Notes under the pieces: model-generated
Told to the model about the DNA's origin: nothing
The model's database searches: none
Seen by the model: the letters and a program-made list of their open reading frames with translations, nothing else
Position numbers and translations under genes: made by a program
Part shown: in pieces, positions 36,228-52,929 of the stretch
Layout of the letters: the number at the start of each line of letters is the position of its first letter
How positions within the stretch are numbered: the first letter of the stretch is position 1
Source of the DNA: Trichostrongylus colubriformis
Lineage: Eukaryota; Nematoda; Chromadorea; Rhabditida; Trichostrongylidae
Direction: 5' to 3'
Length of the DNA stretch: 64,000 nt
Assembly: GCA_963978905.1 (NCBI GenBank)
Contig: OZ022260.1
Location: 47,265,551-47,329,550 of the forward strand

Positions 36228-36695
<468 letters not shown>

Positions 36696-36859
36696 GTTCG
36701 AGCGCCCAATTTAACCCAACGGCCCTCTTTAGGGCCACAAATGTTGCTCAGAAAAACGAATACAGGATATCAATAAGTGATATAAAAATAAATGTGTGAT
36801 AAAGAATTGCTTTTTCGTGTATGTCATAAGATTAATTGGAATCGAAAAGTAGTTAGTAG

Positions 36860-37318
<459 letters not shown>

Positions 37319-38411: not shown

Positions 38412-39078
38412 ATCGGTTCCTATTTTTCATGCCATAAGAAGCTCGAGGACGAGCTCATTTCTCGAGGGAGTGAGTGCACTGGTATTCTCACTTCACCAGT
38501 TGTACCTCTATGTCCATTGTGCCTTTTTATCTACCGTGTACTGCTTCTCCATCAGCCTTCAGTGGTTAGTATCCGTCATGTGTGTCCAATTAGAATACTT
38601 CCATGGCGAAATGAGTAATCAAGAGGTCATGAGAATAGACGTAGCCTTGTAGCGGCTCTCTAAACTGTGACGTTTTTTTCCGTATGTCATCATTCATAAT
38701 TACTCACCAATGCTCCCCAGTCGTTGTATGAATACATGGAGCGTTCGCATAATGGAATGGTATCCTAAGCTCGAGGACGAGCTTACTGAAGGAATGGAGA
38801 TGTCGGGTCCGAGCCGTGAGTAGCGAGGCCACCCAAGTGCCCCGCACCTGTCGCCCACGGCGCAGCAGCTGGCAGAGGTCAACGGAGGTGAACGGACGGC
38901 AGTCGCAATGGTCGCCTGACCATGGCCCGTCGTGTCCTCTCCCTCGTCTTCCCCCTTCCTATCCCATATCTTAATATTATGTATTTTATATAATAAATAT
39001 GTATAGCCATCTCTTGTAATTATTTACATACCGCTACACACCCTTCAGGTTTAGGTTAGGCCAGCCTATAATCTGATA
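38412..39078 (+). repeat. 5' LTR (probably truncated at its left end)
   Basis: 667 bp that match 51835-52501 base for base by eye. AATAAA stands at 38992-38997, about 80 bp before the end. Two perfect inverted repeats AGCTCG-AGGA-CGAGCT occur at 38440-38455 and 38768-38783. The usual TG...CA ends are not visible; the right end is set by the adjoining TGG of the primer-binding site. The left end is probably a deletion breakpoint rather than the natural LTR start. Confidence 0.92.
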
Positions 39079-39089
39079 TGGAGGTCCCA
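39079..39089 (+). other. Primer-binding site, probably tRNA-Gln
   Basis: TGGAGGTCCCA directly follows the 5' LTR. It is complementary to a tRNA 3' end UGGGACCUCCA. Metazoan tRNA-Gln(UUG) ends this way as I remember it; eleven bases match, after which the match stops. Moderate confidence in the site, lower for the tRNA identity. Confidence 0.65.
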
Positions 39090-39971
39090 GGGAGATAATT
39101 TTTTCCTCTCTTCAGTCGTAAATCATAACTCTTATTCAAAGGTACCAAATAGTTTTTTTTTTGGAAAAGGGTTAAAAAAAAAATCACCCGCTCACCCACA
39201 GTTTGCATCTCTTCATAGAATCCCTTTTCCCCACCTTCCCTTCGTCAGAACGTATCCCTGTCGACAGATGCTGTTCACGACAACGAAAACTACCGACGGA
39301 TGCAGATGAACGACTCTCATGTGAGTAATAAATTAACATATTGCTCCATGAATAACCAAAAACAGTTTAGATACGTCTAAACTCTCTCCAAAAAAAAAAA
39401 AAAAAAATTTTTCTTTCATTATCAAGTGCCGATTTTCCGGAAAAGAGCGTGGTGATGTACACACTACGCCTCGTAGGTGCTACATTACTACGGATAGCAA
39501 TGCATACTAGGGCATTGAATATTTAAATTTTACAGTCCTGGCGTCGAGATCCATTTGTAACGGCCATTCATGCCATTAGTTTATGTTAGGCAGTTTCGCC
39601 TATCTCAAATGAGCCTCATAAAGCATAGTAGGCCCCTTTCAAATAAGCCTTATAGTTGGTAGTAGGCTCGTTCAAACCCTCTCGGAGGATCCTTATATAA
39701 TAGTTTATAATAGGCCACTTCCCTATTTACATTTTTTTTTCTCTTCCCTTACGTAGTGTCGTTCAAGTGAATTTTGGGATAATTGTTTCTACTGTGACGA
39801 CAGTGAATCGCTCCCATAGTAACCTTTTGAACTTCAATTAGTACCTGTTAAATGAGGGTATAATTGTTCTTACTGTAACTCAGTGAAACTTTTACGATGT
39901 TTACTCTCCGAAATAGTTCTGTAGTGTTTTAATCTTTTTTTCTCAGTTTAGCAGAGTACCCAAGTATTTAC
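39090..39971. other. Retrotransposon leader, 5' part
   Basis: AT-rich, many T and A homopolymers, no convincing frame. A perfect hairpin AGTTTAGA-TACG-TCTAAACT is at 39364-39383. A good splice donor, CAT|GTGAGT, lies at 39320/39321 on the plus strand and could serve a spliced sense transcript. Confidence 0.5.
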
Positions 39972-40233
39972 TCACATATAGGTTTCCTGTTTCTGAAATA
40001 TTGCCGCACAAATTACAAAGGACTCGCCGCCATATAGTCGACTTACCCTACGGCTGCCATCAATCTGTGGAGCCGCGCGCGCTAGCATTGAGACGTAGCT
40101 AATCTCACCCTCTCCCTGACCCGTCTGGAAAGGCTTGATTGAAGAAGCCATAAACCTTTCAGACTCCAACGAAAGCGATAGACGGTCGTAAATCGTTTTC
40201 AGATGATCGCAGTGACCTCGAACAGCCTCGTAC
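39972..40233 (-). CDS. Antisense gene C (3' exons only), unknown function
   Basis: Two exons on the minus strand: 40233-40047 (acceptor TTTACAG before 40233, donor AGG|GTAAGT at 40047/40046) and 39992-39972 (acceptor ATATTTCAG, ends in TGA). The joined frame stays open: about 62 codons starting YEAVRGHCDHLKTIYDRL, then KQETYM and stop. The 54-nt intron is typical for worms. The first base of the larger exon completes a codon from an upstream exon that I could not place, so the 5' end is missing. The helical, charged middle resembles the middle exons of antisense genes A and B in size, but similarity is weak. Function unknown. Confidence 0.5.
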
Positions 40234-40350
40234 CTGTAAATCTTTAGTGTAAAAACATAAGGTTAGCAGCGCATCCTGCCCTGCGAATAAGATTTACAGC
40301 CGGGCACGCGTGGCGCCGTAAGCTGCAGGATTACGGCCCATGTGCATATA

Positions 40351-40430
40351 GCAAAACAAAAATATAGGCCGAAAAAGTAAGCCGAGGAACGCAAAACAAA
40401 AATATAGGCCGAAAAAGTAAGCCGAAGAAC
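40351..40430. repeat. Two tandem copies of a 40-bp repeat
   Basis: GCAAAACAAAAATATAGGCC and the following 20 bases, ending in GAAC, occur at 40351-40390 and again at 40391-40430 with a single difference (GAGGAAC against GAAGAAC). It lies between antisense genes B and C. No function is evident. Confidence 0.9.
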
Positions 40431-40547
40431 ACCCGTGTATTTTGTTTCCTTTTCAAAGAAAAATGTGTACACAACACAGTTTGAAATCATTTTTTTATTC
40501 GATTAAGAACGAAGGGCATAACGGGTTGATTGATTCTTTCTTCCTCT

Positions 40548-41067
40548 TCACGGTTCTCTTCTCCTTGGTGTTGGAGGCTGCGGCGAATGCACAGGAATGT
40601 ATACCGGCGCATCAAGGTGTGCCGTCCTAGCCCATAGAGCTTGACGGAAAAGATAATTTTCCTGGAAAGAATAAATGAAAAAAATAAGAAATCTTATTAT
40701 TATTCTTACTTATAGAACAACTTTCTATGTAATAAATAAACATACATGAGCGATGGAATTACTGAGATTCAGCATCTCGTCAATTTGGCGCTCGAGTTGC
40801 GCCTTGGCGTAGTCATGCCAGGACGATCTTTGCAAGCTCATCCTCATTGCATCTCTTTGCTCCGTAAGGGTGCGAAGTCGCTGGATTTCTCGCTGCAGAT
40901 CTAGCGCGGCCTTACCACAGCCGGCACATCTTGCAGGCTGAAAATAAAATACTCATTCTATTTTTTTTTCCCTTTCTCTTCCTTTTTTTCATCATTTATG
41001 AAAAAAAAACCCTTACCGTCAAGAGTTGCGCCATTTCTTGTTTGAAAGTGGCGTCATCCATATTCAT
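40548..41067 (-). CDS. Antisense gene B: 118-residue CxxC/coiled-coil protein, unknown function
   Basis: Three minus-strand exons: 41067-41017 (17 codons, starts MNMDDATFKQEMAQLLT), 40937-40746 (64 codons) and 40661-40548 (37 codons plus TGA). All introns are GT-AG, phase 0 and AT-rich (donors GTAAGG and GTATGT; acceptors TTTTCAG and TTTCCAG). Exon 2 begins PARCAGCGKAALDL, a CxxC pair, then a charged stretch with heptad-like spacing (LQREIQRLRTLTEQRD) suggesting a coiled coil. Exon 3 starts EN and ends proline/arginine-rich (PQPPTPRRREP). A TTTTTTTTAAG stretch 5 bases before the ATG could accept a spliced leader. Same exon pattern as gene A, so probably a paralogue. Not recognised as any known family. 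Confidence 0.68.
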
Positions 41068-41265
41068 ATTTATACTTAAAAAAAAGGATTTTGATTAGTA
41101 AAGAAACCGAAAAAGAAGCAGTATGAGAGAATGAGAGGAACGCAAGTATTAGGTAGGTTATTAACCTTTCCTATTTTTCACTAGAACCATAACGTGATTG
41201 TTTATTAACAATTGTTAACAAAGGACAATGAACAAAGGAGTTTCCGAGCTTAGTCGGAGTTCTTG

Positions 41266-41939
41266 TCAGTCCATTTCTGGAGGTGGAGCCGTCGTGGCGT
41301 TGCCCTCGGCCGCCCTTTCCTCTTCTCGACTGGAGGCTATGAACGGAGGGTATCCCTGGTACATCCCCAATCCGAGCCTGTCGAATTGTTGATGAACCGT
41401 CAGGTTTTCCTAAAACAAGCAATTTTTTTTCTCTCCCATAGTTATTTCGGGAATAATACCAGTAAAAATAATAATTAAAAGTAACGCTGAAAAAAAAATG
41501 ATGATAGTACCTCGAATTCCCCGTGCATTGTTTCCGCGGTTTTTTTCAGCTGCTTCATTAGCCTCCGAGTCTCCTGTTTTTTTGATTCCTGTTTGGCGGC
41601 GATCAGGGTTGCCAATTCCAGGCATTCCGCCTGCATACTACCGCAGCGGCTCTGTAGATTTTCTAACCACCTTCTTTCTTCGCGACAGCATCCGCAAGTT
41701 ACCTGCAATATAATAATTTTTTTTCTCTTCATCTCTTTTTTAGTTACTAAGAAATATAAATTATAACCGAAAAAAAAAGAAGAAAAAAAACCCACCGGGG
41801 GAGCGGTGTTTTCATCGTCTGTATAAACCCCTTCCTCAAAGTCGGGCCACGAATCATCGGAATCGGGCGTGGGTGGCGTTGCTGGACAGAACGGATAGTT
41901 CTCTGGATAGGCATTGGCTCCTCCTTCCATATTTTCCAT
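41266..41939 (-). CDS. Antisense gene A: 159-residue CxxC/coiled-coil protein, unknown function
   Basis: Three minus-strand exons: 41939-41796 (48 codons), 41702-41511 (64 codons) and 41409-41266 (47 codons plus TGA). Introns are GT-AG, phase 0, 93 and 101 nt (acceptors ATTGCAG and GTTTTAG). Exon 1 is acidic and proline-rich (PATPPTPDSDDSWPDFEEG). Exon 2 opens VTCGCCREERRWLENL, again CxxC followed by a long charged helix (KQETRRLMKQLKKTAE). Exon 3 starts EN, as in gene B, and ends APPPEMD. The consensus TTTTTCAG two bases before the ATG suggests spliced-leader addition or a 5' UTR intron; TATATATTATA lies about 20 bp further upstream. The introns are spliceable only in antisense RNA, so they would survive retrotransposition. 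Function unknown. Confidence 0.72.
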
Positions 41940-41944
41940 ATTCT

Positions 41945-43063
41945 GAAAAAGAAGTGTATAATATATAGTGGAGAGAAACGAGCACAGCAAGAATTTTTTT
42001 ACTACATGATCACTGCACAGCTTTATGAAAAAAAATTTTTTTAAGAGGAGAACAAGGTAGTGAGAAGACTACACGAAGATAACATGGGAGGAGGGCAACC
42101 TCCCAGGTAAGGAGAAGCAGGGCGAATGAGTTCAGGTATGACCTCACGCCCATCACAATACTTTCCAAGGGTCGTAAACGGCCTTACCACAACAACAGAA
42201 GGCAACGACATGGAGAATAGGACCACCCATAAATTACCTCAAGACCCCACAAGCAATAGTCCAGCATGACTCTAACTAACAAAGGAAAAATAAACCGCTC
42301 AATAATAAATGACTAACAAAGAAAAAAAAAACCGCTCAATAATAAATCTTAGTAGCAGGAAAATTCGAATACATGGCGTATACTGGGGCTAGCAAACAGA
42401 AAATTGACTAATTTTCATGAATTAGTTCGATTTGTTCCAGTGTTAGTAGAAACATTACATGTAGATAGAAATCCCTACCTTCCAATTGATACGTCGATAT
42501 ACCTCAACGTAGAGTACATGGCGCAATCCCTTTTTTTGAATTAGGAGGCTTACAAACAACTTGGCATAGTTCTCTCATCGAAAATGACAACCCAGGGTAG
42601 TTCGATCATCTTATATTGATAAATATTAGATATAGTTTAAGAAAATAAGATTTTCTGATTTTTATTCATAATTTTCTATATTTCCTTTCTTTTCTTCACT
42701 TTATTCACTAAAATGACTAATTATATAAACGATAATGTTCCTTACAAACAATTTAACCTTCTACTGCTTCAACCCAGCAAATTAATAAGTTTTATGTTTC
42801 ATTCGACCATTAAGTTAATCTTTCGTGCACCTTGCCTCTCAAAGGCGCACAGGAGCTCACGTATATGATTTTTTTTCAATACTAAACTTACCAAAAACGT
42901 TAAATTTTCCTTTTTCTTTTCTCTTTTCTTTTCTGAACCATTCTATTTAGCAAAATATCTTTAAAAATGAACAAATAACCGTTCCGTGGCGAATTAATTC
43001 GGGAGAATAAGTTTTATATGCCCAAACCTCTATTCAAATTGTCGGAAAGGTACGGTAATCTTA
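41945..43063. other. Retrotransposon leader, AT-rich stretch upstream of gene A and gag
   Basis: About 1.1 kb of AT-rich sequence with A and T homopolymers and no frame I can support. The part next to 41945 probably contains the antisense promoter; TATA-like sequence on the minus strand lies at 41952-41969. Confidence 0.45.
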
Positions 43064-43116
43064 ACAGCTGCGTGTGGGAGGTACCACCCAGGGACAGCCG
43101 CGTGTGGGAGGTGCCA
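43064..43116. repeat. Direct repeat of 23 bp with 30-bp period
   Basis: ACAGCTGCGTGTGGGAGGTA (43064 on) and ACAGCCGCGTGTGGGAGGTG (43094 on) are two near-identical copies followed by CCA in both. It lies in the leader just before the hairpin at 43141-43155. Function unknown; possibly part of an RNA packaging or regulatory region. Confidence 0.7.
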
Positions 43117-43140
43117 AAAGCTTTCTCTTAGATAGATATA

Positions 43141-43482
43141 AGCTCGAAAACGAGCATTATCAACATTTGCTCTCGTCTGGAGCAGTCGGTCCGGTCCACC
43201 ATCAGCTCAAGCCTCTAACAGCTCGTCCAGTTGTCCACGTTTGCCGGATATTGCCACCCAAAATAAGTGAGTCTTTTGAACATTTCGTTTAACATACTAA
43301 CAACTTCTTTACTTTATTAGTTTTTTTTCTTGCCTGACAATCTATACAAATACCAATTCAAAAAAAAAACCCCTTTTGTTTCCTCAAAGTGTTTCTACAT
43401 AACATACTAACAACTAGAATATAATTCAAAAATCCATAAACATTTTTTTTTATATCAACCAACTTAGTACTCTCGTACTAGG
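43141..43482 (+). promoter_or_regulatory. Leader hairpins and possible intron before gag
   Basis: AGCTCG-AAAA-CGAGC at 43141-43155 repeats the LTR hairpin with the loop changed but the stem kept. A second hairpin, CTTAGTAC-TCTC-GTACTAGG, is at 43463-43482, ending 9 bases before the gag ATG. A donor (ATAA|GTGAGT, 43266/43267) and an acceptor (CAACTTAG, 43467) could define a 201-nt intron in the leader; joining does not extend the gag frame, because a stop follows at once. Confidence 0.5.
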
Positions 43483-43491
43483 TGTTAATAT

Positions 43492-46400
43492 ATGAGCAGT
43501 TCCGACTCCGAACTATTAAATAGTCCGGACGAAAGGCCATATTTTTTCTGTATCCCTGGTAGAAGGACAACTAAGCGTCGTTCAAGATCGCGTCTAGTCC
43601 CAGTCCCTGATAAAAAGAAACTTAGGGAGAGAGGCGAATTTCGAGCATCTTCTGAAACTCCTTCTTGTTGTGTCATCCCCAATCGTCAGGTATTACAACG
43701 TATTAGAGCACAGTCAGTACCACCACAAGTAGAACCTTGTGCACCCCTTCCTGACTACGAAGACTCTCTATCAAGCACCCCAACACCGCTTGATAGTCCA
43801 CACTCACCACAACCACAACCAATCGCCAACCCTCCAGCTCCAAGTCCACAACCACAACCAATTGCCAACCCTCCAGCTCCAAGTCCACAACCGCAACAAA
43901 TCGACGACCCCACAACTCCAAGTCCACAACCAAACGACGATTCTATAGCTGACCCACAATATCCTGTTATCGAAGCACCCATAGAAATACAGATCAACTG
44001 TATCCAAGCTCAGGCAGGAAATAATATACACGCTAACCCATTCTTAGCTATGGAAAACGCCGCAGCAGACCGTTTAGAAGCAGCTTTTGATAAGCTATGC
44101 CTAGCCCCATATGCTAGTAAATTACCTACATTCTACGGAGATAAGTCGGGAGCTGGTTTCATGGATTTCATTGCACAATTCAATGAAATAGGTAATATCA
44201 TGGGTCTCAACGAAACACAAATGGTTCGCCTTCTTCCAGTTCATCTTAAGGGAGAGGCTAAAGCAGTTTTTGAAAACTTTTCCGATGAGGAAAAGCAAAA
44301 CTGGCGAGTGGCAGTAACTTTACTAAAGAATCACTTTTCGTCTGAGCATTTCTTAGACGTAGCGCGGGAACGAATCATGACTATGCGAATGGAACCGGGA
44401 GAATCTCCTATTCTCTTCTCCAATAGACTCCGTAAGGAAATAATGGATGCATACCCAAGTGTCAACTTAGCTGAACAGCGTAAATTTCTCCAAAATATGG
44501 TATTTACAAACGCACTACCTAATTCAATTAAGCAAAAATTGAAAATTCTTGGTCCTTTACCCACTGACCATGACAAATTAGTAAGGGAGGCTGAACGGAT
44601 GTTTGACATAGAAAAGACGGATAGTCAACATCAGGGAGAACATAGACTGATCGCGAAAATTGATAAAGTTATAGATACGCTAGTTTCCAAAAGAAACTAT
44701 GAATTTTCTCCCAACTTTAATCGCAATTCACCACGTAATCACAACCCCAACTTTCAGTATAAAAAACGGTATAACAAAAGCTCTTTCAAAAATAGTAATC
44801 GTCCTCCTTCACGTTCTAGAACCCCAACGCGTAATTCTGTAAGGTTTGCACCCAACAGCCAAAATAGCTATAATAGAGATAGAAAACCCTATTTCAATAG
44901 GAGCCGTTCATCAAATCGATCGCAGAATCGATTTAATAACCAATCAAACCGCCCTAATTTCAATAGAAATCAACAAAGACCAAGATCACCATTTCGTCGT
45001 CAAGCACAAACCCCTCCACGTTACCAGGTTAATTCCATACATCGTGTTCCATCCGTAGTATCTCTACAGCCAACTACTTCTCTATTTCTTGTTGCAATAT
45101 TTAGTATCTTTATCATCCCTACGGATGCCATGTCTCTTAAATATCAACTTTGTGCAGCTGGGAAATCAGGATGGCCTATTGCCTTTCCAGATCCCATTAA
45201 ATGCACTAGTTCCCCTAATGCGTCAGAACTTCTCATTACAGAAGCTGAACTTTACGTAGAGCAAACAGAGCCACTTTTGATAACAGCGTTTCACTGTTTC
45301 AATAAGACTAGGAAAATTTGTGCTTCTTCCTATCTACATGTAACTTTTTCGGTAGATAGTGATGAGGAATTCATGACTCCTGTTGATCCTGCTCTATGCA
45401 AATTACTGACGGAAACAAGGAAGTTCATGGGAGTTCCTCTCGAACAATTCTCGCCAAATACATATGGTTCAGAAAATCAAATCCACTACTCTTACCCATG
45501 GTTTTTCGGAGAGAAATGCACAGTCACTACGAATGTGTATTTCGAAAAAGGTGTCATAGCAACTTTTGACGGCGATCACGTAATAGGACAATTTGGCGAT
45601 ATGGCACATTGCACCATGGGAAGAACCCAATGTATTCTAACACATGGCACTGTCATTTGGACAAGACCGCAATTGTTAAGTCGGCTGTGTCGTTACGTAA
45701 AAGCAGCTAATGGCGTAGCATATGTAACACCAACTCACATAGTACTTAGCAATATCCAATCCGCCTTTACATATAAGAATGTAACATTCGCACCTTCCAA
45801 GTTGTACTCATGGTGTCTTAGTCAGCACGCTATCCCAATGGACAATGGAGTTTTCATTGTCCTTCCGGAAATAGCGGGATACAACCCTCGTACTTTATTT
45901 TCTGCACATTCTGATGTGGTAGAATCTATCAATCAAAAGCATTTTTACAATTCACAATTTGTACATTTTGCAAAAACAGTAAGCCAATCTAGTCGCATGT
46001 ATCGTGCTACGCCTAACGCTACTCACAATGCAACCTCAACCGATCCAACTCCACCAGAAGCGTTACCTTTTAATCTGGGTATACTTCATAAATTTATCCA
46101 TTCATTGCAGAAAAAGTCATTAGATTCTAAAAGATTCACTTTCGGAGTTCGCTCGCGCGCGAGAAGAGTCCGTGACATAAGTCTAAATAATCATAATATT
46201 TTGGATACTTTGTTACGTGCCACCAAAAGCCCGGAAATCTTTATTCCTATAGAAACTACTACGCAAGCTCCAGTGAATATCTCGGCCCAGATAGCTCATC
46301 ATATAGCTCTTAATAGTGAACCAGACTTTGAGTCTATGATTGACGATAGTTCAATTAGTCACGAAGAACGGCAAGATAGTAGACAGGCGGAACTTAATAC

Positions 46401-49400
46401 AAAGTTGCAATTTTTGAAATTCAAGATGGACGAAGTTGTCAAACAAGATTATAACTATTTACTAGATCGTATCTGCTCTCTTATGAATTTTAAAATACAA
46501 TCAATCAAAAGCATAGCTCAAATAAATCCGACTAGCGCAGCACGTATGTTGCTGAATCGAGAAGATATATTTGCCTTATCTGCAGGAGACGTTCTCATGG
46601 TTTCCAAATGCAGAGAAATTATAATAGAAGAAATCATTCTTGACCACAATATCAAAGGAACTTGTTATGTGTTTACACCTGTTAGATCAGGAAAAACACA
46701 CTATTTCATCCAACCCGGCACACGAGACCTTGTTAAAGATAGTCCCGAAGCTGACTGTGGACATCTTCCATTTGGAATTTATAACGATGGTTATAACCAT
46801 TATAAGTCGCCATCTGGTTATGCCCAAGTGACAAATATTCACTTGAATCTACCCAACGGTGTAACTAATGAAAACTTCGTTTTCAATGCACCACCCATAT
46901 TTCATTCGGATTTAGCCAAGATTTCGACTGACATCTATCTCATCAAGAGTCATATCAATTCAATGACCAATTTATACACAGTCAAATCGAAGTCATCGAC
47001 AAGCAAGTTAGGATCCATCTCGGATAAGCTTGAAAATGAAGTTGCTGACTCTGCCGGATATCTGGAATCAAACGCTGCAAATTTTATTCAGTCTCAAAAG
47101 AAGAGAATTTTAGAATCCTTCAGTTTGCACACTCTGGTGCAAACAATTGTGATAGTGTCCATCGTCGTCACCTTCTTGATCATACTAACAGTGTTATACT
47201 GTAATTTCGCCATAATTCGGATTCCACTTAGCTACTGCTTCAAAGCCATAGGTATCGCGTTCTCATTCTGTCTCGCAACAATCTGCAATAAACGCTCTTC
47301 TCCACCAAGGGAAGACTCTCGTGTCACGTTTTTGACAAATACCAATCGTGGACACATTAATCAACCGTCAACTACTCAAGCACCAGTCAATGTCTCAATA
47401 CAACTACCCTCAACGATCAACATACCGGAGCAAGAACGTACACGGACGCCCACAGTTCCCCGAGAATCATCTTCATCTAGATCCAAGTCTCCCAAGTCGA
47501 AACCGTTCCTGTCATTCGTTCCAAACGTCGCTTGTATTCACCGCACGGACGCCGCCTCCATGATCTACATTCCAGCAGTACTTGACAGTTCATCCATAGT
47601 AGCTCTCCTCGATACAGGTTCCGCTCTCACGATAGTCTCCGCTACGGTCGCTCGGAAATTGAATGCGCACCTTTTCCGATCAACGATCGCACAGGGTATC
47701 ACAGCCAACGGAACACCGATGAAGCTTCTTGGTCAATTCACTCCCTATCTTACATTAGGAGATAAAACCGTCAAGATCACTTGCTACGTCGCTTCTGATG
47801 CAAATTGCCCTTCTCCGTTTATTCTTGGTAACGACGTTATACCACAATTTGCTCAAACAATGTCTATCAACTATCACAATAACACTATTTTCTTCGATAA
47901 TACTACAGTCCCGTTTACAACATCTGCATACAACACTTACAACTTTCCAGAATACCCAGTTTATCTTGCTTCCGATACATATCTGCAACCATGCTCAGAT
48001 AGCGTGGTTATGGGCACCACTAAAACATCTTTCCCGGAAAAATGGGAACTTTTCACTTCTGATAGCATGGAATACCCCATGCCTGATGGAGTCCAAATTG
48101 GGAAAACCCTTTCTTGCCCAAACGTAGATGGTGAAGTAGTCTTACGTATTTTTAATTCTAATGCTGTACCCATATTTCTACCAAAAAATACTAAAATAGG
48201 CAAAGCTACCATAACAGGAGTAGATATGTTATGGCAGCCCGTATTCTCAGTATACGTAAATAACGACTTTGATCAGGAAAATTCTTTGCCTGTCAAAGCA
48301 TCCGAATATATCCCTCCAGAATCGGATTTCGCCAAGGAATTGCCCCATTTTCCCAGCACCCAACGTTCAAAAACCCATAACCTCGTTCAAATCAACCACT
48401 CCACATTAAATAATTCACAACTTCAAGAATTTAATAAGCTACTGCACAAATATAAAGATTGTTTCGTCGGAAACGATGGAAATCTTGGTCGTTACATAGG
48501 TCCCATTACTCATAGCATAAATTTTATTCCACATTCAAAGACCCCAAAACAACGTCCGTACCGGGTACCGCTAGAAAAACGGAAAGAAATAGAAAGGCAA
48601 ATCAAAGAAATGCTAAGAACGCGTATCATAGAGCCTAGCACAAGCAAGTTTGCCTCCCCCATAGTGCTTGTTAAAAAAGGCCCAAACAAGGATCAGTGGA
48701 GATTCACAGTAGACTATCGTCAAATTAATGCAATAACGGAAACTGAAACATATTGTATTCCTCATATGCAAGATATCTTAGATCTTGTTAGTGGTAAGGA
48801 AATCTATTCAGTACTCGATTTTAAAAGTGGTTTCTTCCAAATACCTTTAGCGAAGGAACATAAAGAACGTACAGCGTTCACTTCGTCTCTTGGATTATAC
48901 CAGTTTACAGTAATGGCTCAAGGGCTAAAGGGTGCCCCAGCTACATTTCAGAGGGTAGCGAACAGCCTTATTCGTGAACTAAAATCGTGCTGTTTTGCTT
49001 ACATTGACGATATTATTATTGCAAGTCAGTCGGTAAGTCAGCACTTGATTGATTTGGAGGAAATCTTTCAACGTATAAGAAAGTTTGGCATGAAATTGAC
49101 ACCAGAAAAGTGCTCATTCTTCCAAACGGAAGTACAGTATCTTGGTGTACTCATCAGCAGAAATGGCACTCGTCCTAACCCGAAAAAGGTGGCGAGCATT
49201 GCTGAAATCCCACGTCCTGCAGACGTTAAAGCCATAAAATCATTTCTAGGAGCAGCTTCATATTTCCGTAGGTATATACCACGCTTCTCTATCATTGCTA
49301 CTCCCCTTAACAATCTTTTAGCCAAAAATGCACCGTTCGTTTGGACAGAATCCCACGAACAAGCATTCGTAGCAATTAAGCAAGCTCTTATGCAAGCTCC

Positions 49401-49521
49401 GCTTCTAGTCTCACCAACTTTCGGACAACCGTATATTATACATACGGATGCGTCCACAACAGGACTAGGCGCTTGCTTACTGCAGTACAACCAAAAAAAA
49501 CCAAAGGAGAACATCCCATAG
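43492..49521 (+). CDS. Retrotransposon polyprotein: gag, envelope-like glycoprotein, protease, RT, start of RNase H
   Basis: 2009 codons. The ATG is the first after an in-frame TAA at 43486. Residues 1-185 are serine/proline-rich with three 39-bp repeats (43807-43923). About 188-377 is a Ty3/gypsy-type gag capsid region; 400-518 is basic (R/N/S-rich) with no CCHC knuckle. A signal-like hydrophobic run (about 531-543) opens a long ectodomain-like stretch with cysteines and six N-X-S/T sites, a furin-type RARR site (889-892) and a membrane segment at about 1215-1242 followed by a second hydrophobic run. Protease follows (DTGS at 1374-1377), then RT with YIDD (1837-1840), then RNase H (HTDAS), which is cut by the frame break at A8 (49493-49500). 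The glycoprotein-like part lies between gag and pol, not after pol as in errantiviruses. Confidence 0.93.
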   Translation: MSSSDSELLNSPDERPYFFCIPGRRTTKRRSRSRLVPVPDKKKLRERGEFRASSETPSCCVIPNRQVLQRIRAQSVPPQVEPCAPLPDYEDSLSSTPTPLDSPHSPQPQPIANPPAPSPQPQPIANPPAPSPQPQQIDDPTTPSPQPNDDSIADPQYPVIEAPIEIQINCIQAQAGNNIHANPFLAMENAAADRLEAAFDKLCLAPYASKLPTFYGDKSGAGFMDFIAQFNEIGNIMGLNETQMVRLLPVHLKGEAKAVFENFSDEEKQNWRVAVTLLKNHFSSEHFLDVARERIMTMRMEPGESPILFSNRLRKEIMDAYPSVNLAEQRKFLQNMVFTNALPNSIKQKLKILGPLPTDHDKLVREAERMFDIEKTDSQHQGEHRLIAKIDKVIDTLVSKRNYEFSPNFNRNSPRNHNPNFQYKKRYNKSSFKNSNRPPSRSRTPTRNSVRFAPNSQNSYNRDRKPYFNRSRSSNRSQNRFNNQSNRPNFNRNQQRPRSPFRRQAQTPPRYQVNSIHRVPSVVSLQPTTSLFLVAIFSIFIIPTDAMSLKYQLCAAGKSGWPIAFPDPIKCTSSPNASELLITEAELYVEQTEPLLITAFHCFNKTRKICASSYLHVTFSVDSDEEFMTPVDPALCKLLTETRKFMGVPLEQFSPNTYGSENQIHYSYPWFFGEKCTVTTNVYFEKGVIATFDGDHVIGQFGDMAHCTMGRTQCILTHGTVIWTRPQLLSRLCRYVKAANGVAYVTPTHIVLSNIQSAFTYKNVTFAPSKLYSWCLSQHAIPMDNGVFIVLPEIAGYNPRTLFSAHSDVVESINQKHFYNSQFVHFAKTVSQSSRMYRATPNATHNATSTDPTPPEALPFNLGILHKFIHSLQKKSLDSKRFTFGVRSRARRVRDISLNNHNILDTLLRATKSPEIFIPIETTTQAPVNISAQIAHHIALNSEPDFESMIDDSSISHEERQDSRQAELNTKLQFLKFKMDEVVKQDYNYLLDRICSLMNFKIQSIKSIAQINPTSAARMLLNREDIFALSAGDVLMVSKCREIIIEEIILDHNIKGTCYVFTPVRSGKTHYFIQPGTRDLVKDSPEADCGHLPFGIYNDGYNHYKSPSGYAQVTNIHLNLPNGVTNENFVFNAPPIFHSDLAKISTDIYLIKSHINSMTNLYTVKSKSSTSKLGSISDKLENEVADSAGYLESNAANFIQSQKKRILESFSLHTLVQTIVIVSIVVTFLIILTVLYCNFAIIRIPLSYCFKAIGIAFSFCLATICNKRSSPPREDSRVTFLTNTNRGHINQPSTTQAPVNVSIQLPSTINIPEQERTRTPTVPRESSSSRSKSPKSKPFLSFVPNVACIHRTDAASMIYIPAVLDSSSIVALLDTGSALTIVSATVARKLNAHLFRSTIAQGITANGTPMKLLGQFTPYLTLGDKTVKITCYVASDANCPSPFILGNDVIPQFAQTMSINYHNNTIFFDNTTVPFTTSAYNTYNFPEYPVYLASDTYLQPCSDSVVMGTTKTSFPEKWELFTSDSMEYPMPDGVQIGKTLSCPNVDGEVVLRIFNSNAVPIFLPKNTKIGKATITGVDMLWQPVFSVYVNNDFDQENSLPVKASEYIPPESDFAKELPHFPSTQRSKTHNLVQINHSTLNNSQLQEFNKLLHKYKDCFVGNDGNLGRYIGPITHSINFIPHSKTPKQRPYRVPLEKRKEIERQIKEMLRTRIIEPSTSKFASPIVLVKKGPNKDQWRFTVDYRQINAITETETYCIPHMQDILDLVSGKEIYSVLDFKSGFFQIPLAKEHKERTAFTSSLGLYQFTVMAQGLKGAPATFQRVANSLIRELKSCCFAYIDDIIIASQSVSQHLIDLEEIFQRIRKFGMKLTPEKCSFFQTEVQYLGVLISRNGTRPNPKKVASIAEIPRPADVKAIKSFLGAASYFRRYIPRFSIIATPLNNLLAKNAPFVWTESHEQAFVAIKQALMQAPLLVSPTFGQPYIIHTDASTTGLGACLLQYNQKKPKENIP

Positions 49522-51239
49522 CGTACTGTAGTCGTTCATTGAACAAGCATGAGAAAAATTATGCTGTCATTGAATTAGAAGCGTTAGCCATAGTCTTCGC
49601 GCTGAAACATTTCTACCCCTATGTAGCAAATGCGCGCATAACGCTGGTCACAGACCATGCACCCCTCAAGTCACTTATGCATAGATCAGATCTAGTTGGT
49701 CGTCTAGCTAAGTACCAAATTAGTATTCAAGCCTACGATATTACAATAGAATATCGTGCAGGCAAACATAATACTTTCTGTGACTTCCTTAGTCGTTATC
49801 CACTCCCTAGTATTAACGCTATAGTCACGCAAACACTGCCCTCTCTTGAAGAAATTCAAGAGAGCCAAAAACGTTCTAAATATGGCCAACTTTTGAAATT
49901 CCTCCAAGGAGAACTTGAGGACCCTCCTCAAGAATTCGACAATACATTGCACAACTATTCTATTCACAACAATGCACTTTATTACAATCTGCATAACAAA
50001 ATTAGTCTAATCATTCCAGATGCAGATATGCAAACGAAAATTATTTCGATATTTCATGATAATCCTCTTTTAGGTTTACATTTAGGTATTAACAAAACAT
50101 ACAAATCAATAAAAGCTAAATACTATTGGCCAAATTTATATCAGGACGTATCCACGTATATTAATACGTGCCCCGTGTGTCAAAAGGTGAAAACACCTTC
50201 ACCACACATAATTCGCGAAGAATTAGGAAATTTCCCGATTCCACAGCGACCCTTTGAACGCGTCCACACGGACATCGTAGGTCCACTACCACAATGCCCG
50301 GATGGTAGTAAATTTATTTCGATCACAGTTTGTGCCTTTAGCAAATTCATGGTTTGCACTCCGCTGATAGATCAAACTATAGAATCAGTTATCAAAGTTT
50401 TGATTAATGATGTCATTTCCAAACATGGCATCCCACAAGAAATAGTGTCTGATCGTGGTTCGAACTATACCAGCGAAGTATTCTCAAAAATCAATAAAGC
50501 TTTAGGCATAACCAATAAATTTACTACCAGCTATAACCATAAAGCGAACGGTCAAGCGGAAAGACTTGTGAAAGTCATAATTGACTCCCTCACAGCTTAC
50601 TGCTCGGAAGCCAGAGACCTTTGGTCTGACTTCCTCCAACCCATTGTTTTCGCCTACAACTGTAGTATCAACGCTACTACAGGTTATAGCCCATTCTTCA
50701 TTGTATATGGTAGATGTCCGATCACGTGGAGTGATATCTTGCACGAACTTCCAACAAGACATGTGTTCACGTCGGACGATTTTGCTGATCAATTCGCCGC
50801 TGGTCTGAAACACACAATTATGGAAGTAGGAAACGAGATCGCCAACAAGTCAGCACAGTACAAAACAGGATATGATCTACAACATAAGGTATACCCTAAG
50901 GACATTTCCATTGGTGACTTAGTTCTATTACACGACGACACAGTGCGTCCCAAGCTCACAAATCAATGGAAAGGCCCTTTTCCTGTTGAGGAAGTTAATC
51001 GTCCCAACATTTCCATTACTAATATTGTAGGTCGTGCTACACGACAAGTTGTGCACATAAATCGTCTGAAGTTGTATTGCCCACGTTCATTGTCAGCTAG
51101 CGTTTCCAACTCTAACCAACAACCAATTCCACCAATCAATGAGAAAACACCAGCTGCCAATCAACAACCTATAATAAGACGTTCGCGTCGCCTTCAGGAA
51201 AAGCAGTCAGTTGCAATAGATCAGCTTTCGGATGATTAA
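49473..51239 (+). CDS. Retrotransposon RNase H (rest) and integrase, in the -1 frame
   Basis: This frame overlaps the end of the preceding one by 49 bases and is offset by -1; homology resumes at AYCSRSLNKHEKNYAV, so the N-terminal codons before the A8 run are not a separate start. It carries the RNase H remainder (TDHAPLKSL), the integrase zinc-binding HHCC domain (ending CPVCQKV) and the integrase core with D (50271), D (50451) and E (50559), i.e. DD35E spacing. A GPF/Y-type C-terminal module (WKGPFPVEEV) follows, and a basic tail ends in DQLSDD. There is no chromodomain. It is expressed either by -1 slippage at A_AAA_AAA or not at all if the break is a mutation. Confidence 0.93.
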   Translation: MLTAVQPKKTKGEHPIAYCSRSLNKHEKNYAVIELEALAIVFALKHFYPYVANARITLVTDHAPLKSLMHRSDLVGRLAKYQISIQAYDITIEYRAGKHNTFCDFLSRYPLPSINAIVTQTLPSLEEIQESQKRSKYGQLLKFLQGELEDPPQEFDNTLHNYSIHNNALYYNLHNKISLIIPDADMQTKIISIFHDNPLLGLHLGINKTYKSIKAKYYWPNLYQDVSTYINTCPVCQKVKTPSPHIIREELGNFPIPQRPFERVHTDIVGPLPQCPDGSKFISITVCAFSKFMVCTPLIDQTIESVIKVLINDVISKHGIPQEIVSDRGSNYTSEVFSKINKALGITNKFTTSYNHKANGQAERLVKVIIDSLTAYCSEARDLWSDFLQPIVFAYNCSINATTGYSPFFIVYGRCPITWSDILHELPTRHVFTSDDFADQFAAGLKHTIMEVGNEIANKSAQYKTGYDLQHKVYPKDISIGDLVLLHDDTVRPKLTNQWKGPFPVEEVNRPNISITNIVGRATRQVVHINRLKLYCPRSLSASVSNSNQQPIPPINEKTPAANQQPIIRRSRRLQEKQSVAIDQLSDD

Positions 51240-51593
51240 AAGGGTTTCTAACTGTTCACTCCAAACAGTTCGCCCTTAGGTCAGTTTGTTTTCCTTCATT
51301 TCTCGCCGCACTGCCGCAATATAAAAGAACATTCTTTGAATAGGCGGTTCAAAGAATCTAAAAAGCGTTCAAAACAAACACTATTTGCAATAATCTTACG
51401 CCCTTGTACTAATCGAAATGTGTGTCCACACAGATTAGTACTTGTATCGTTTTATTTCTGTTACATTAGTTAGTCGCCGATCCACAGATCTTAAAGACTA
51501 ACTTTTGTCTCGTTATACTATTTTTTTCTTGCAAAATTAGCTCCAAATGTGCCTTATAACTAGTTTATTACCACCATTTTTTTTGGTTCAAAC
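51240..51593 (+). other. Post-pol region with four successive inverted repeats
   Basis: Directly after the pol stop, four stems follow: AACTGTT/AACAGTT (51250-51270, 7-nt loop); TTCTTTGAA/TTCAAAGAA (51332-51356, 7-nt loop); GTACTAATC/GATTAGTAC with inner TGTGTG/CACACA (51406-51441); AGTTAGTC/GACTAACT (51468-51503). All are perfect or nearly so. There is no coding frame. They could act in RNA stability, export or packaging. Confidence 0.75.
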
Positions 51594-51606
51594 GAAAAAA
51601 AAAGGG
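51594..51606 (+). other. Candidate polypurine tract
   Basis: G followed by nine A and GGG is the only clean purine run near the 3' LTR and has the usual A-then-G form for plus-strand priming. It ends 228 bp before the part matched by the 5' LTR, which suggests the real 3' LTR starts near 51607 and is about 895 bp long. Confidence 0.6.
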
Positions 51607-51834
51607 CTATACATCAAAATTATACCTTATTTTTGCCTTTTCACAAATTGTTTTAACTCGTAAAGATCCATTCTTTTCAATGTACTGCTACAGTAGAAAT
51701 TCTTGCGTTAAAACTAACAAAATGTATGAGGATAACTCGTAGAATAGGATTTCATTCAAATTGTATTTCTTGTAATTGCTTTACCCCACCATCGTCATTT
51801 TTCGATCCTGAACCGATTCATTCTGCCACTCAGT

Positions 51835-52501
51835 ATCGGTTCCTATTTTTCATGCCATAAGAAGCTCGAGGACGAGCTCATTTCTCGAGGGAGTGAGTGC
51901 ACTGGTATTCTCACTTCACCAGTTGTACCTCTATGTCCATTGTGCCTTTTTATCTACCGTGTACTGCTTCTCCATCAGCCTTCAGTGGTTAGTATCCGTC
52001 ATGTGTGTCCAATTAGAATACTTCCATGGCGAAATGAGTAATCAAGAGGTCATGAGAATAGACGTAGCCTTGTAGCGGCTCTCTAAACTGTGACGTTTTT
52101 TTCCGTATGTCATCATTCATAATTACTCACCAATGCTCCCCAGTCGTTGTATGAATACATGGAGCGTTCGCATAATGGAATGGTATCCTAAGCTCGAGGA
52201 CGAGCTTACTGAAGGAATGGAGATGTCGGGTCCGAGCCGTGAGTAGCGAGGCCACCCAAGTGCCCCGCACCTGTCGCCCACGGCGCAGCAGCTGGCAGAG
52301 GTCAACGGAGGTGAACGGACGGCAGTCGCAATGGTCGCCTGACCATGGCCCGTCGTGTCCTCTCCCTCGTCTTCCCCCTTCCTATCCCATATCTTAATAT
52401 TATGTATTTTATATAATAAATATGTATAGCCATCTCTTGTAATTATTTACATACCGCTACACACCCTTCAGGTTTAGGTTAGGCCAGCCTATAATCTGAT
52501 A
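51835..52501 (+). repeat. 3' LTR (matched part)
   Basis: 667 bp matching the 5' LTR. AATAAA at 52415-52420; hairpins AGCTCG-AGGA-CGAGCT at 51863-51878 and 52191-52206. The full LTR probably extends left to about 51607. The right end abuts AGCGTCACC of the H2B leader at 52502. Confidence 0.92.
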
Positions 52502-52557
52502 AGCGTCACCTTACCCACTGACTCGCCAGTGATCACCTCGTGTATCAACGATCAACG

Positions 52558-52929
52558 ATGCCACCAAAGCCGTCCGCCAAGGGAGCCAAGAAAGCCGCGA
52601 AGAGCCAGAAGGCCAGCCGTACCGGAGACAAGAAGAAGAAGCATAAGCGCAAGGAGAGCTACTCCGTGTACATCTACCGTGTGCTTAAGCAAGTGCACCC
52701 CGACACTGGTGTCTCCTCAAAAGCCATGTCGATCATGAACTCGTTCGTCAACGATGTTTTTGAGCGCATCGCTGCTGAGGCATCTCGTCTGGCGCACTAC
52801 AACAAGCGTTCGACCATCTCGTCTCGCGAAATCCAGACTGCTGTCCGACTGATCCTTCCGGGAGAGCTCGCCAAGCACGCCGTCTCCGAGGGCACCAAGG
52901 CCGTCACGAAGTACACCTCAAGCAAGTAA
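52558..52929 (+). CDS. H2B: Histone H2B (unit 7, directly behind the 3' LTR)
   Basis: 123 residues, intact and identical to other copies. Only 56 bp of its own upstream sequence remain (52502-52557), so the GGCGGAGC motif and the shared promoter are gone and the 3' LTR takes their place. Transcription, if any, would have to start in the LTR or in the short leader. Hairpin at 52970-52985 is intact, so such a transcript could still be processed as a histone mRNA. Confidence 0.97.

What the first reader, a model, noticed from the sequence alone, without database searches (positions are those of the whole stretch)
40548..41939. Two paralogous, intron-containing antisense genes inside an LTR retrotransposon leader
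On the minus strand, between the 5' LTR and gag, two genes share one design: three exons, both introns phase 0 and GT-AG, a middle exon of exactly 64 codons starting with a CxxC pair and continuing as a charged helix, and a third exon starting EN. Their introns can be spliced only from antisense RNA, so they would persist through the sense genomic RNA. Antisense ORFs are known in some plant Ty3/gypsy elements; I know of no spliced pair in a nematode element. They may be accessory regulators, for example host-defence antagonists or copy-number control proteins (inference).
Basis: partly seen in the sequence, partly recalled or inferred. Interest (0 to 1): 0.9.

Follow-up and report, generated by a model that had tools for sequence, protein, structure and literature searches.

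The report
Swappable antisense gene pair in worm retroelement
A family of virus-like jumping elements in a genome that is most likely a parasitic roundworm's carries, on the strand opposite to its main genes, a pair of genes with predicted introns that bear the mark of purifying selection and sit in a block that appears to have been swapped between elements; the two small proteins likely regulate the element itself.

Summary
Minus-strand genes A (159 aa) and B (118 aa) lie between the 5' LTR and gag of a recent Ty3-like element with an env-like domain. NCBI holds Trichostrongylus colubriformis gene models with the same exon joints. In two comparisons with diverged relatives, exon gaps are multiples of three, changes pile up at codon position 3, and synonymous far exceeds nonsynonymous change (pS 0.78, pN 0.35, Fisher 4e-23). 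Two further, deeply diverged antisense pairs sit in leaders of related elements.

The surprise is mosaicism. The C5 element resembles the window closely in gag and env-like DNA (dS 0.08-0.10), yet its antisense genes are near saturation at synonymous sites. The C7 copy joins a window-type antisense block to a left leader of the other type. The block behaves like an exchanged module.

Both proteins are predicted as CxxC plus one long helix. I propose a self-specific regulator pair. There are no RNA or functional data; A-B paralogy is plausible, not proven.

The parts
38412..39078 (+). 5' LTR (667 bp)
   Evidence: 100% identical to 51835-52501 over 667 bp; exact 5' boundary and target-site duplication unresolved
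41796..41939 (-). gene A exon 1 (48 codons, acidic and proline-rich)
41703..41795 (-). gene A intron 1 (predicted, phase 0, GT-AG)
41511..41702 (-). gene A exon 2 (64 codons, CxxC then long helix)
41410..41510 (-). gene A intron 2 (predicted, phase 0, GT-AG)
41266..41409 (-). gene A exon 3 (47 codons and stop)
41201..41206 (-). AATAAA after gene A, 133 nt before the gene B start codon
41943..41950 (-). TTTTTCAG just upstream of the gene A start; possible trans-splice acceptor (inference)
41017..41067 (-). gene B exon 1 (17 codons)
40938..41016 (-). gene B intron 1 (predicted, phase 0, GT-AG)
40746..40937 (-). gene B exon 2 (64 codons, CxxC then long helix)
40662..40745 (-). gene B intron 2 (predicted, phase 0, GT-AG)
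40548..40661 (-). gene B exon 3 (37 codons and stop)
40494..40499 (-). AATAAA after gene B
40260..43117 (.). block that behaves as an exchanged module; approximate breakpoints near 40.26 kb (window versus C7 copy) and near 43.12 kb (window versus C5 element)
43492..49521 (+). first sense frame: gag, env-like domain, protease, reverse transcriptase
   Evidence: Pfam: Retrotrans_gag weak (0.0021, below cut-off), Monjiviricetes_fusion 4e-15, RVT_1 1.3e-34; protease only a weak match (0.043)
46393..46806 (+). class III fusion-glycoprotein-like domain between gag and reverse transcriptase
   Evidence: PF24664 E 4e-15, above its cut-off
49380..51239 (+). second sense frame: RNase H and integrase
   Evidence: PF17917 2.3e-24, PF17921 3.2e-20, PF00665 1.5e-11
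51835..52501 (+). 3' LTR

Best explanation
The minus strand between the 5' LTR and gag holds two protein-coding genes with predicted introns, under purifying selection, that likely form one operon-like unit and would encode two CxxC coiled-coil proteins acting as trans regulators of the element's own expression. Shown: frames, exon layout, selection, linkage of A and B, presence in several element lineages, and a mosaic pattern in which deeply diverged antisense blocks sit on closely similar gag-env backbones. Inferred: the block is exchanged by template switching between co-packaged genomes; antisense transcription starts upstream of A within the block; B is released by trans-splicing about 135 nt after the A poly(A) signal; the CxxC sites bind zinc and pair the helices, A with B or each with itself; the proteins act on RNA or chromatin of elements carrying the matching block, in the manner of Rev or CERV (RNA export) or HBZ (transcription). 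Because the introns run antisense, sense genomic RNA would not lose them by splicing, so the genes can pass through reverse transcription.
For: Annotated proteins with the same joints and a diverged annotated B, P0009, 58% identical. Selection: window versus C5:16.15M, six exons pooled, pS 0.78 and pN 0.35, Fisher 4e-23; window versus the B gene at C6:3.38M, pS 0.68 and pN 0.24, Fisher 4e-13. Exon gaps are 12, 6, 6, 3 and 3 nt; intron and spacer gaps include 34, 7, 37, 26, 2, 1 and 10. A and B travel together: 9 of 13 B exon-2 places have an A exon-2 match within 1 kb, same strand and order. Diverged pairs at C3:18.55M and C6:20.08M, and at C6:14.96M and C5:37.4M. Mosaicism. AATAAA of A to ATG of B: 133, 137, 146 nt in three types. 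Models: B one helix 25-97 (mean pLDDT 84), A disordered acidic start then helix 52-123 (mean pLDDT 70).
Against: No RNA evidence of any kind. No known domain above cut-off in the five exons scanned and no homologue outside T. colubriformis in word-limited searches. No motif points to a regulator role. Some copies integrated without the full pair: C6:122.8k (97% gag) runs from the LTR end straight to 42096, without the pair or the left leader; C6:30.74M keeps only A. In C3:18.55M B intron 2 lies several codons further on, A exon 3 is short and exon 1 of B is disturbed, so the layout is not rigid. Antisense transcripts could pair with genomic RNA and invite RNA interference. The left leader (39.1-40.26 kb) is not obligately inherited with the block, so any matched cis target must lie inside the block or elsewhere. 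Zinc binding and A-B pairing are not tested.
Confidence: 0.4

Rival explanations
1. The pair antagonises host silencing, for example worm Argonaute small-RNA pathways, and the block diversifies because host factors change.
For: Antisense LTR-derived small RNAs show the highest density among exWAGO guides across Strongylida (PMC13195028, passages). Strongly diverged proteins with several block types fit an arms race.
Against: Substitution is dominated by purifying selection (pN far below pS). No match to any known family above cut-off. A host arms race does not by itself explain why closely similar backbones in one genome carry two old alleles.
Confidence: 0.25
2. Self-restriction: A and B limit copies of the same block type (copy-number control or exclusion), and block exchange lets an element escape resident restriction.
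For: The mosaic block on similar backbones resembles the gag exchange tied to Ty1 copy-number control (PMC7055915, abstract). Few gag-bearing copies per block type were seen, and one 97% copy has lost the pair.
Against: Ty1 p22 is a sense product of gag; A and B lie on the other strand and matched no gag family. Copy numbers per type are too small to test.
Confidence: 0.18
3. The sequence acts mainly as antisense RNA or as leader RNA structure, and the frames are secondary.
For: Introns are more alike than exons in the comparison with C6:3.38M (81-85% versus 64-78%), which hints at non-coding constraint.
Against: Codon-position bias, gap lengths and pS versus pN need protein-level selection.
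Confidence: 0.05
4. A and B form a toxin-antidote-like pair that favours retention of the element.
For: Two small co-inherited, strongly diverged genes.
Against: A without B (C6:30.74M) and B without a recognised A (C6:3.38M, all three B exons open) both exist; no toxin-like features were seen.
Confidence: 0.04
5. The deep divergence is an assembly chimera or a nested unrelated element, not block exchange.
For: Assemblies can misjoin repeats; no reads were available.
Against: The pattern recurs at independent loci: C5:16.15M, C7:21.09M, and C6:16.03M, where type-2 genes adjoin env-like and protease sequence 82-95% identical to the window.
Confidence: 0.04

Closest known systems
HBZ and APH antisense genes of deltaretroviruses (HTLV-1 to HTLV-4)
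   Same: Minus-strand protein genes of a retroelement with spliced transcripts; mostly nuclear regulators of viral expression (PMC10186651, passages).
   Different: Those are driven by an antisense promoter in the 3' LTR, and HBZ is a bZIP protein. Here two tandem genes lie in the 5' leader, each with two predicted introns and CxxC, with no bZIP match, in a Ty3-like element of what is most likely a nematode.
Antisense additional ORFs of plant LTR elements (Grande gene23, RIRE2, Retand TRP28)
   Same: Antisense protein-coding extra genes fixed in an LTR element family, suspected regulators (PMC7264820 and PMC11963269, passages).
   Different: The plant cases are mostly between pol and the 3' LTR (the review says upstream ones exist too); the word intron does not occur in either main text; TRP28 was not matched here. 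Tandem pair, exon design and module exchange differ.
CERV of Cer1 (C. elegans)
   Same: Nematode Ty3-like element regulator with a cysteine-rich region and a possible leucine zipper, needed for export of unspliced genomic RNA (PMC10309623, abstract, sections 6 and 9 and passages).
   Different: CERV is a sense product of 517 aa that shares exons with gag; A and B are antisense, 159 and 118 aa.
Ty1 copy-number control (p22) and Ty1/Ty1' gag exchange
   Same: A self-specific control module that moved between subfamilies by recombination (PMC7055915, abstract).
   Different: p22 is a sense product of gag; no antisense protein pair.
Atlas virus and other env-bearing nematode elements
   Same: Retrovirus-like nematode element with a viral glycoprotein (PMC9094657, search listing only).
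   Different: The Atlas env is phlebovirus-like; here the env-like domain matches the Monjiviricetes fusion family and lies between gag and reverse transcriptase.

Membership tests
Ty3-like LTR element (Metaviridae) | flanking LTRs | tested here: met
   667 bp, 100%; target-site duplication and TG..CA ends not recognised
Ty3-like LTR element (Metaviridae) | RT then RNase H then integrase order | tested here: met
   Pfam order in two overlapping frames
HBZ/APH-type retroviral antisense gene | minus-strand protein gene in the provirus | tested here: met
HBZ/APH-type retroviral antisense gene | driven from the 3' LTR, at the 3' end of the provirus | tested here: not met
   genes lie at 40.5-41.9 kb next to the 5' LTR; the promoter itself is not testable here
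HBZ/APH-type retroviral antisense gene | bZIP domain (HBZ) | tested here: not met
   Pfam scan of five exons apart gave no bZIP match; B exon 1 (17 aa) was not scanned
Plant antisense aORF (Retand type) | TRP28 domain PF04195 | tested here: not met
   five exons scanned apart
Plant antisense aORF (Retand type) | position between pol and 3' LTR | tested here: not met
   5' leader position
CERV | sense spliced product sharing gag exons | tested here: not met
   minus-strand genes upstream of gag
CERV | export of unspliced genomic RNA | not testable with these tools
   needs experiment
Ty1 p22 copy-number control | restriction factor derived from gag | tested here: not met
   genes are on the strand opposite to gag and matched no gag family
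Ty1 p22 copy-number control | dose-dependent self-restriction | not testable with these tools
   needs experiment
Nematode operon | short gap between poly(A) signal and next gene | tested here: met
   133, 137, 146 nt in three types; the usual gap size is recalled
Nematode operon | SL2-type trans-splicing of the downstream gene | not testable with these tools
   no RNA data

The most novel reading that the evidence does not exclude
Animal retroelements possess an exchangeable antisense specificity cassette: an operon-like pair of CxxC coiled-coil genes hidden from splicing on the sense strand, existing in several ancient types that recombine between otherwise closely similar elements, working like the immunity region of lambdoid phages to define which elements regulate or exclude one another.
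Probability: 0.2. Interest if true: 0.92.

Novelty: new variant of a known kind. Interest (0 to 1): 0.76.

Why it matters
A 2023 review states that there is no evidence so far that endogenous retroviruses encode minus-strand proteins in the way of primate T-lymphotropic viruses and HIV-1 group M (PMC10186651, passage). Here an element with an env-like domain, most likely from a nematode, carries two such genes with clear selection on the protein. The antisense placing of introns would solve, by geometry, the problem of keeping introns through reverse transcription. The contrast between near-saturated antisense divergence and 8-10% synonymous divergence in gag and env-like sequence on the same two elements gives a directly testable case of modular, perhaps type-specific control among coexisting animal retroelements. 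It also bears on how RNAi-competent worms tolerate antisense transcription from young elements.

Tried and rejected
Tried without result: Pfam on five of the six exons (no match for four; efb-c at 0.019 for B exon 2, below its cut-off; B exon 1 not scanned). PDB sequence search (none for A, two weak matches at 0.15 and 0.4 for B). Searches of 5.8 billion proteins gave only T. colubriformis entries; they are word-limited, so absence elsewhere is not shown. Fold searches were not run, because single long helices match too much.

Rejected: a third antisense gene in the window left leader (frame 39972-40262); relatives have in-frame stops and gaps of 10 and 2 nt. Not taken as proof of paralogy: hhalign of exon 2 alone was reached by 0 of 100 shuffles but aligned out of register, and of exon 3 alone by 2 of 100. 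With exon 2 plus part of exon 3 the local score is not significant (11 of 100); the global in-register score is reached by 0 of 100.

Against my reading, told in full. The strict exon scan took six sequences: window, C3:18.55M and C6:20.08M gave two antisense hits each; C7:28.97M, C5:37.4M and piece L024 gave none. In one search it gave 0 of 13 further leaders on the antisense strand and one sense-strand hit (L048), so real DNA does yield a stray hit. The pair at C6:14.96M (L046) was then seen in a listing of long antisense frames and confirmed by pieces 60-86% identical at C5:37.4M; the scan had not found it, and the A start codon there was not identified. In 10 leaders of distant gag lineages (24-30% gag identity) neither the scan nor tblastn showed the pair. 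Of 11 leaders examined beside gag matches of 43% or more, 7 have the pair; further fragmentary matches in that range were not examined. In one search low values for L013 below 39.65 kb arise because that locus ends there, and L003 stops matching above about 43.2 kb.

Full report
What was checked. The window (C7:47265551-47329550 of an unnamed 331 Mb genome) holds an LTR element at about 38412-52501 with 667-bp LTRs that are 100% identical, so the insertion is recent. It lies between what I read as histone H4 and H2B genes (histone names recalled). Its sense frames encode gag, an env-like segment matching the Pfam family Monjiviricetes_fusion (4e-15), a weakly matched protease, reverse transcriptase, RNase H and integrase. 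B is identical to, and A two residues different from, T. colubriformis entries, so the host is most likely that species or a close one (inference).

The two genes. Gene A and gene B are on the minus strand in the 4.4-kb leader. Coordinates are in the parts list; translations are. All four predicted introns are GT-AG, phase 0. NCBI proteins GCK32_015303 (159 aa) and GCK32_015302 (118 aa) are the same spliced products. I cannot say whether RNA supported that annotation.

Are they real genes? In the same genome a DNA search found seven matches, the window included, among them a second copy of both genes at C7:21.09M and an A-only copy at C6:30.74M, both 98%. Protein searches found 13 B exon-2 and 15 A exon-2 places at E up to 1, the window included. 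Nine of the 13 B places have A within 1 kb, same strand and order. Nine places form a second set ('type 2': L011 and L013-L020). In three of them (L013 = C5:16.15M, L019, L020) all six exons can be recognised in the order A1-A2-A3-B1-B2-B3; the others are partial. Between the window and C5:16.15M, gaps in the six exons are 12, 6 and 6 nt; in introns and spacer they are 34, 7, 37, 26, 2, 3, 2, 10 and 2. Differences by codon position are 117, 94 and 164 of 291 each (Fisher 1e-8). Nei-Gojobori counts pooled over six exons give pS 0.78 and pN 0.35 (Fisher 4e-23); single exons range over pS 0.55-0.92 and pN 0.21-0.40. For the B gene at C6:3.38M, pS is 0.68 and pN 0.24 (4e-13). Close pairs of type-2 copies (L011 and L013 in B exon 2; L019 and L020 in A exon 2) have ratios of 1.03 and 0.81, as expected for copies decaying after insertion. 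At C5:16.15M the B intron-2 acceptor is altered, and several type-2 copies carry stops or frameshifts, so not every copy is intact.

The module. In 150-bp tiles the C5:16.15M element has gag and env-like DNA 86-99% identical to the window (one tile unmatched), LTR 86-92% where covered, leader 74-92%, but the antisense genes match only in pieces at 61-76% or not at all. At protein level gag pieces are 94%, env-like pieces 95-96% apart from two short ones at 73% and 81%, and A and B exons 33-51%. Synonymous divergence is 0.098 in gag and 0.080 in the env-like part covered, against near saturation in A and B. The change is sharp near 43.12 kb: 18 differences in the 361 bases after it, 44 in the 214 before it. 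Conversely the C7:21.09M copy is mostly 95-100% like the window from 40.26 kb into env (one gag tile 91%), but from 39.2 to 40.25 kb its 100-base rows are 95-100% like type-2 elements L013 and L011 where these are covered (one row with only 30 comparable sites against L011 is 70%), and 78-95% like the window. So C7:21.09M joins a type-2 left leader to a type-1 antisense block. In addition C6:14.25M (L006), whose gag is only 58% identical over residues 14-82, has A and B exon 2 closer to the window (45% and 62%) than those of C5:16.15M (33% and 44%) with its 94% gag. The antisense block and the backbone therefore have different histories. Template switching between co-packaged genomes is the ordinary mechanism (established knowledge of retroviruses; inference here).

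Wider distribution. Leaders of sister elements were read. C3:18.55M and C6:20.08M (gag 65% and 58%; 99% alike to each other) carry an antisense pair with exon 2 of 64 and 65 codons starting VGCSAC and PKNCEEC, found by a blind exon scan. Exon 1 of B is disturbed there, A exon 3 is short, and the ENYL..RQ motif that opens B exon 3 elsewhere lies inside exon 2. C6:14.96M carries a pair with open exons at phase-0 sites (A exon 2 67 codons with CSC, B exon 2 69 codons with CPEC), matched at C5:37.4M at 60-86% in pieces, plus a third antisense frame of similar design in both, frameshifted in C6:14.96M. Of 11 examined leaders beside gag matches of at least 43%, 7 have the pair: window, C7:21.09M, C5:16.15M, C3:18.55M, C6:20.08M, C5:37.4M, C6:14.96M. 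Four do not: C6:122.8k (a 97% copy that runs from the LTR end to 42096), C7:28.97M, C7:5.67M, C5:16.77M. Of 10 distant lineages, none showed it. So the pair looks ancestral to this clade of elements (inference).

What the proteins look like. B is predicted to be one helix from residue 25 to 97 right after CxxC (mean pLDDT 84). A has a disordered acidic, proline-rich start, CxxC, then a helix at 52-123 (mean pLDDT 70). Motifs largely kept between types 1 and 2 include PATPP and GVYTDD in A and PRRRE near the end of B. Zinc binding and coiled-coil pairing are inferred.

Mechanism. I favour self-specific trans regulation: antisense transcription from within the block, operon-like processing (AATAAA to next ATG 133, 137, 146 nt in three types), and two CxxC helical proteins acting on elements with the matching block. 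Rivals are silencing antagonists and self-restriction; the calls cannot separate them.

Unexplained. In the comparison with C6:3.38M, introns are more alike (81-85%) than exons (64-78%) although synonymous sites are near saturation. Leader DNA around the genes is also less diverged than synonymous sites. Constraint on leader RNA, a higher substitution rate in the exons, or recombination in the flanks of a long-kept polymorphism could each do this.

Literature. Seen as passages: PMC10186651, PMC7264820, PMC11963269, PMC5408684, PMC13195028. Abstract, two named sections and passages: PMC10309623. Abstract and outline: PMC7055915. Search listing only: PMC9094657. No report of an antisense, intron-bearing gene pair in an animal LTR element appeared in the listings.

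Noticed in passing
window 46393-46806: A class III fusion-glycoprotein-like domain (Monjiviricetes_fusion, 4e-15; weaker herpes gB and bornavirus G matches below their cut-offs) lies between gag and reverse transcriptase inside the same long frame, an unusual place for an env-like gene.
   Followed up: partly
window 49380-49521: The sense coding region is split into two overlapping frames here (2010 and 619 aa), while the copy at C7:21.09M has one open frame of 2584 aa.
   Followed up: no
window 36228-37318 and 52522-52929: The element sits inside what reads as a histone gene cluster, between H4 and H2B. No target-site duplication or TG..CA LTR ends were recognised.
   Followed up: partly
L018, L019, L011: Copies where the antisense genes run into LTR sequence near LTR position 65 without gag-pol; L018 and L019 share nearly the same leader-to-LTR junction, suggesting a non-autonomous derivative.
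   Followed up: partly
L046:4868-5074 and L030 (C5:37.4M): A third antisense frame with a CxC start and a long helix-like stretch lies on the LTR side of gene B in the type-4 leaders; frameshifted in L046.
   Followed up: partly
L026 (C6:117500-122800): A copy with 97% identical gag runs from the LTR end (39076) straight to 42096, so the antisense genes and left leader are missing.
   Followed up: yes
L022:161-1182: Tandem array with 146-bp period beside the C5:16.15M element.
   Followed up: no
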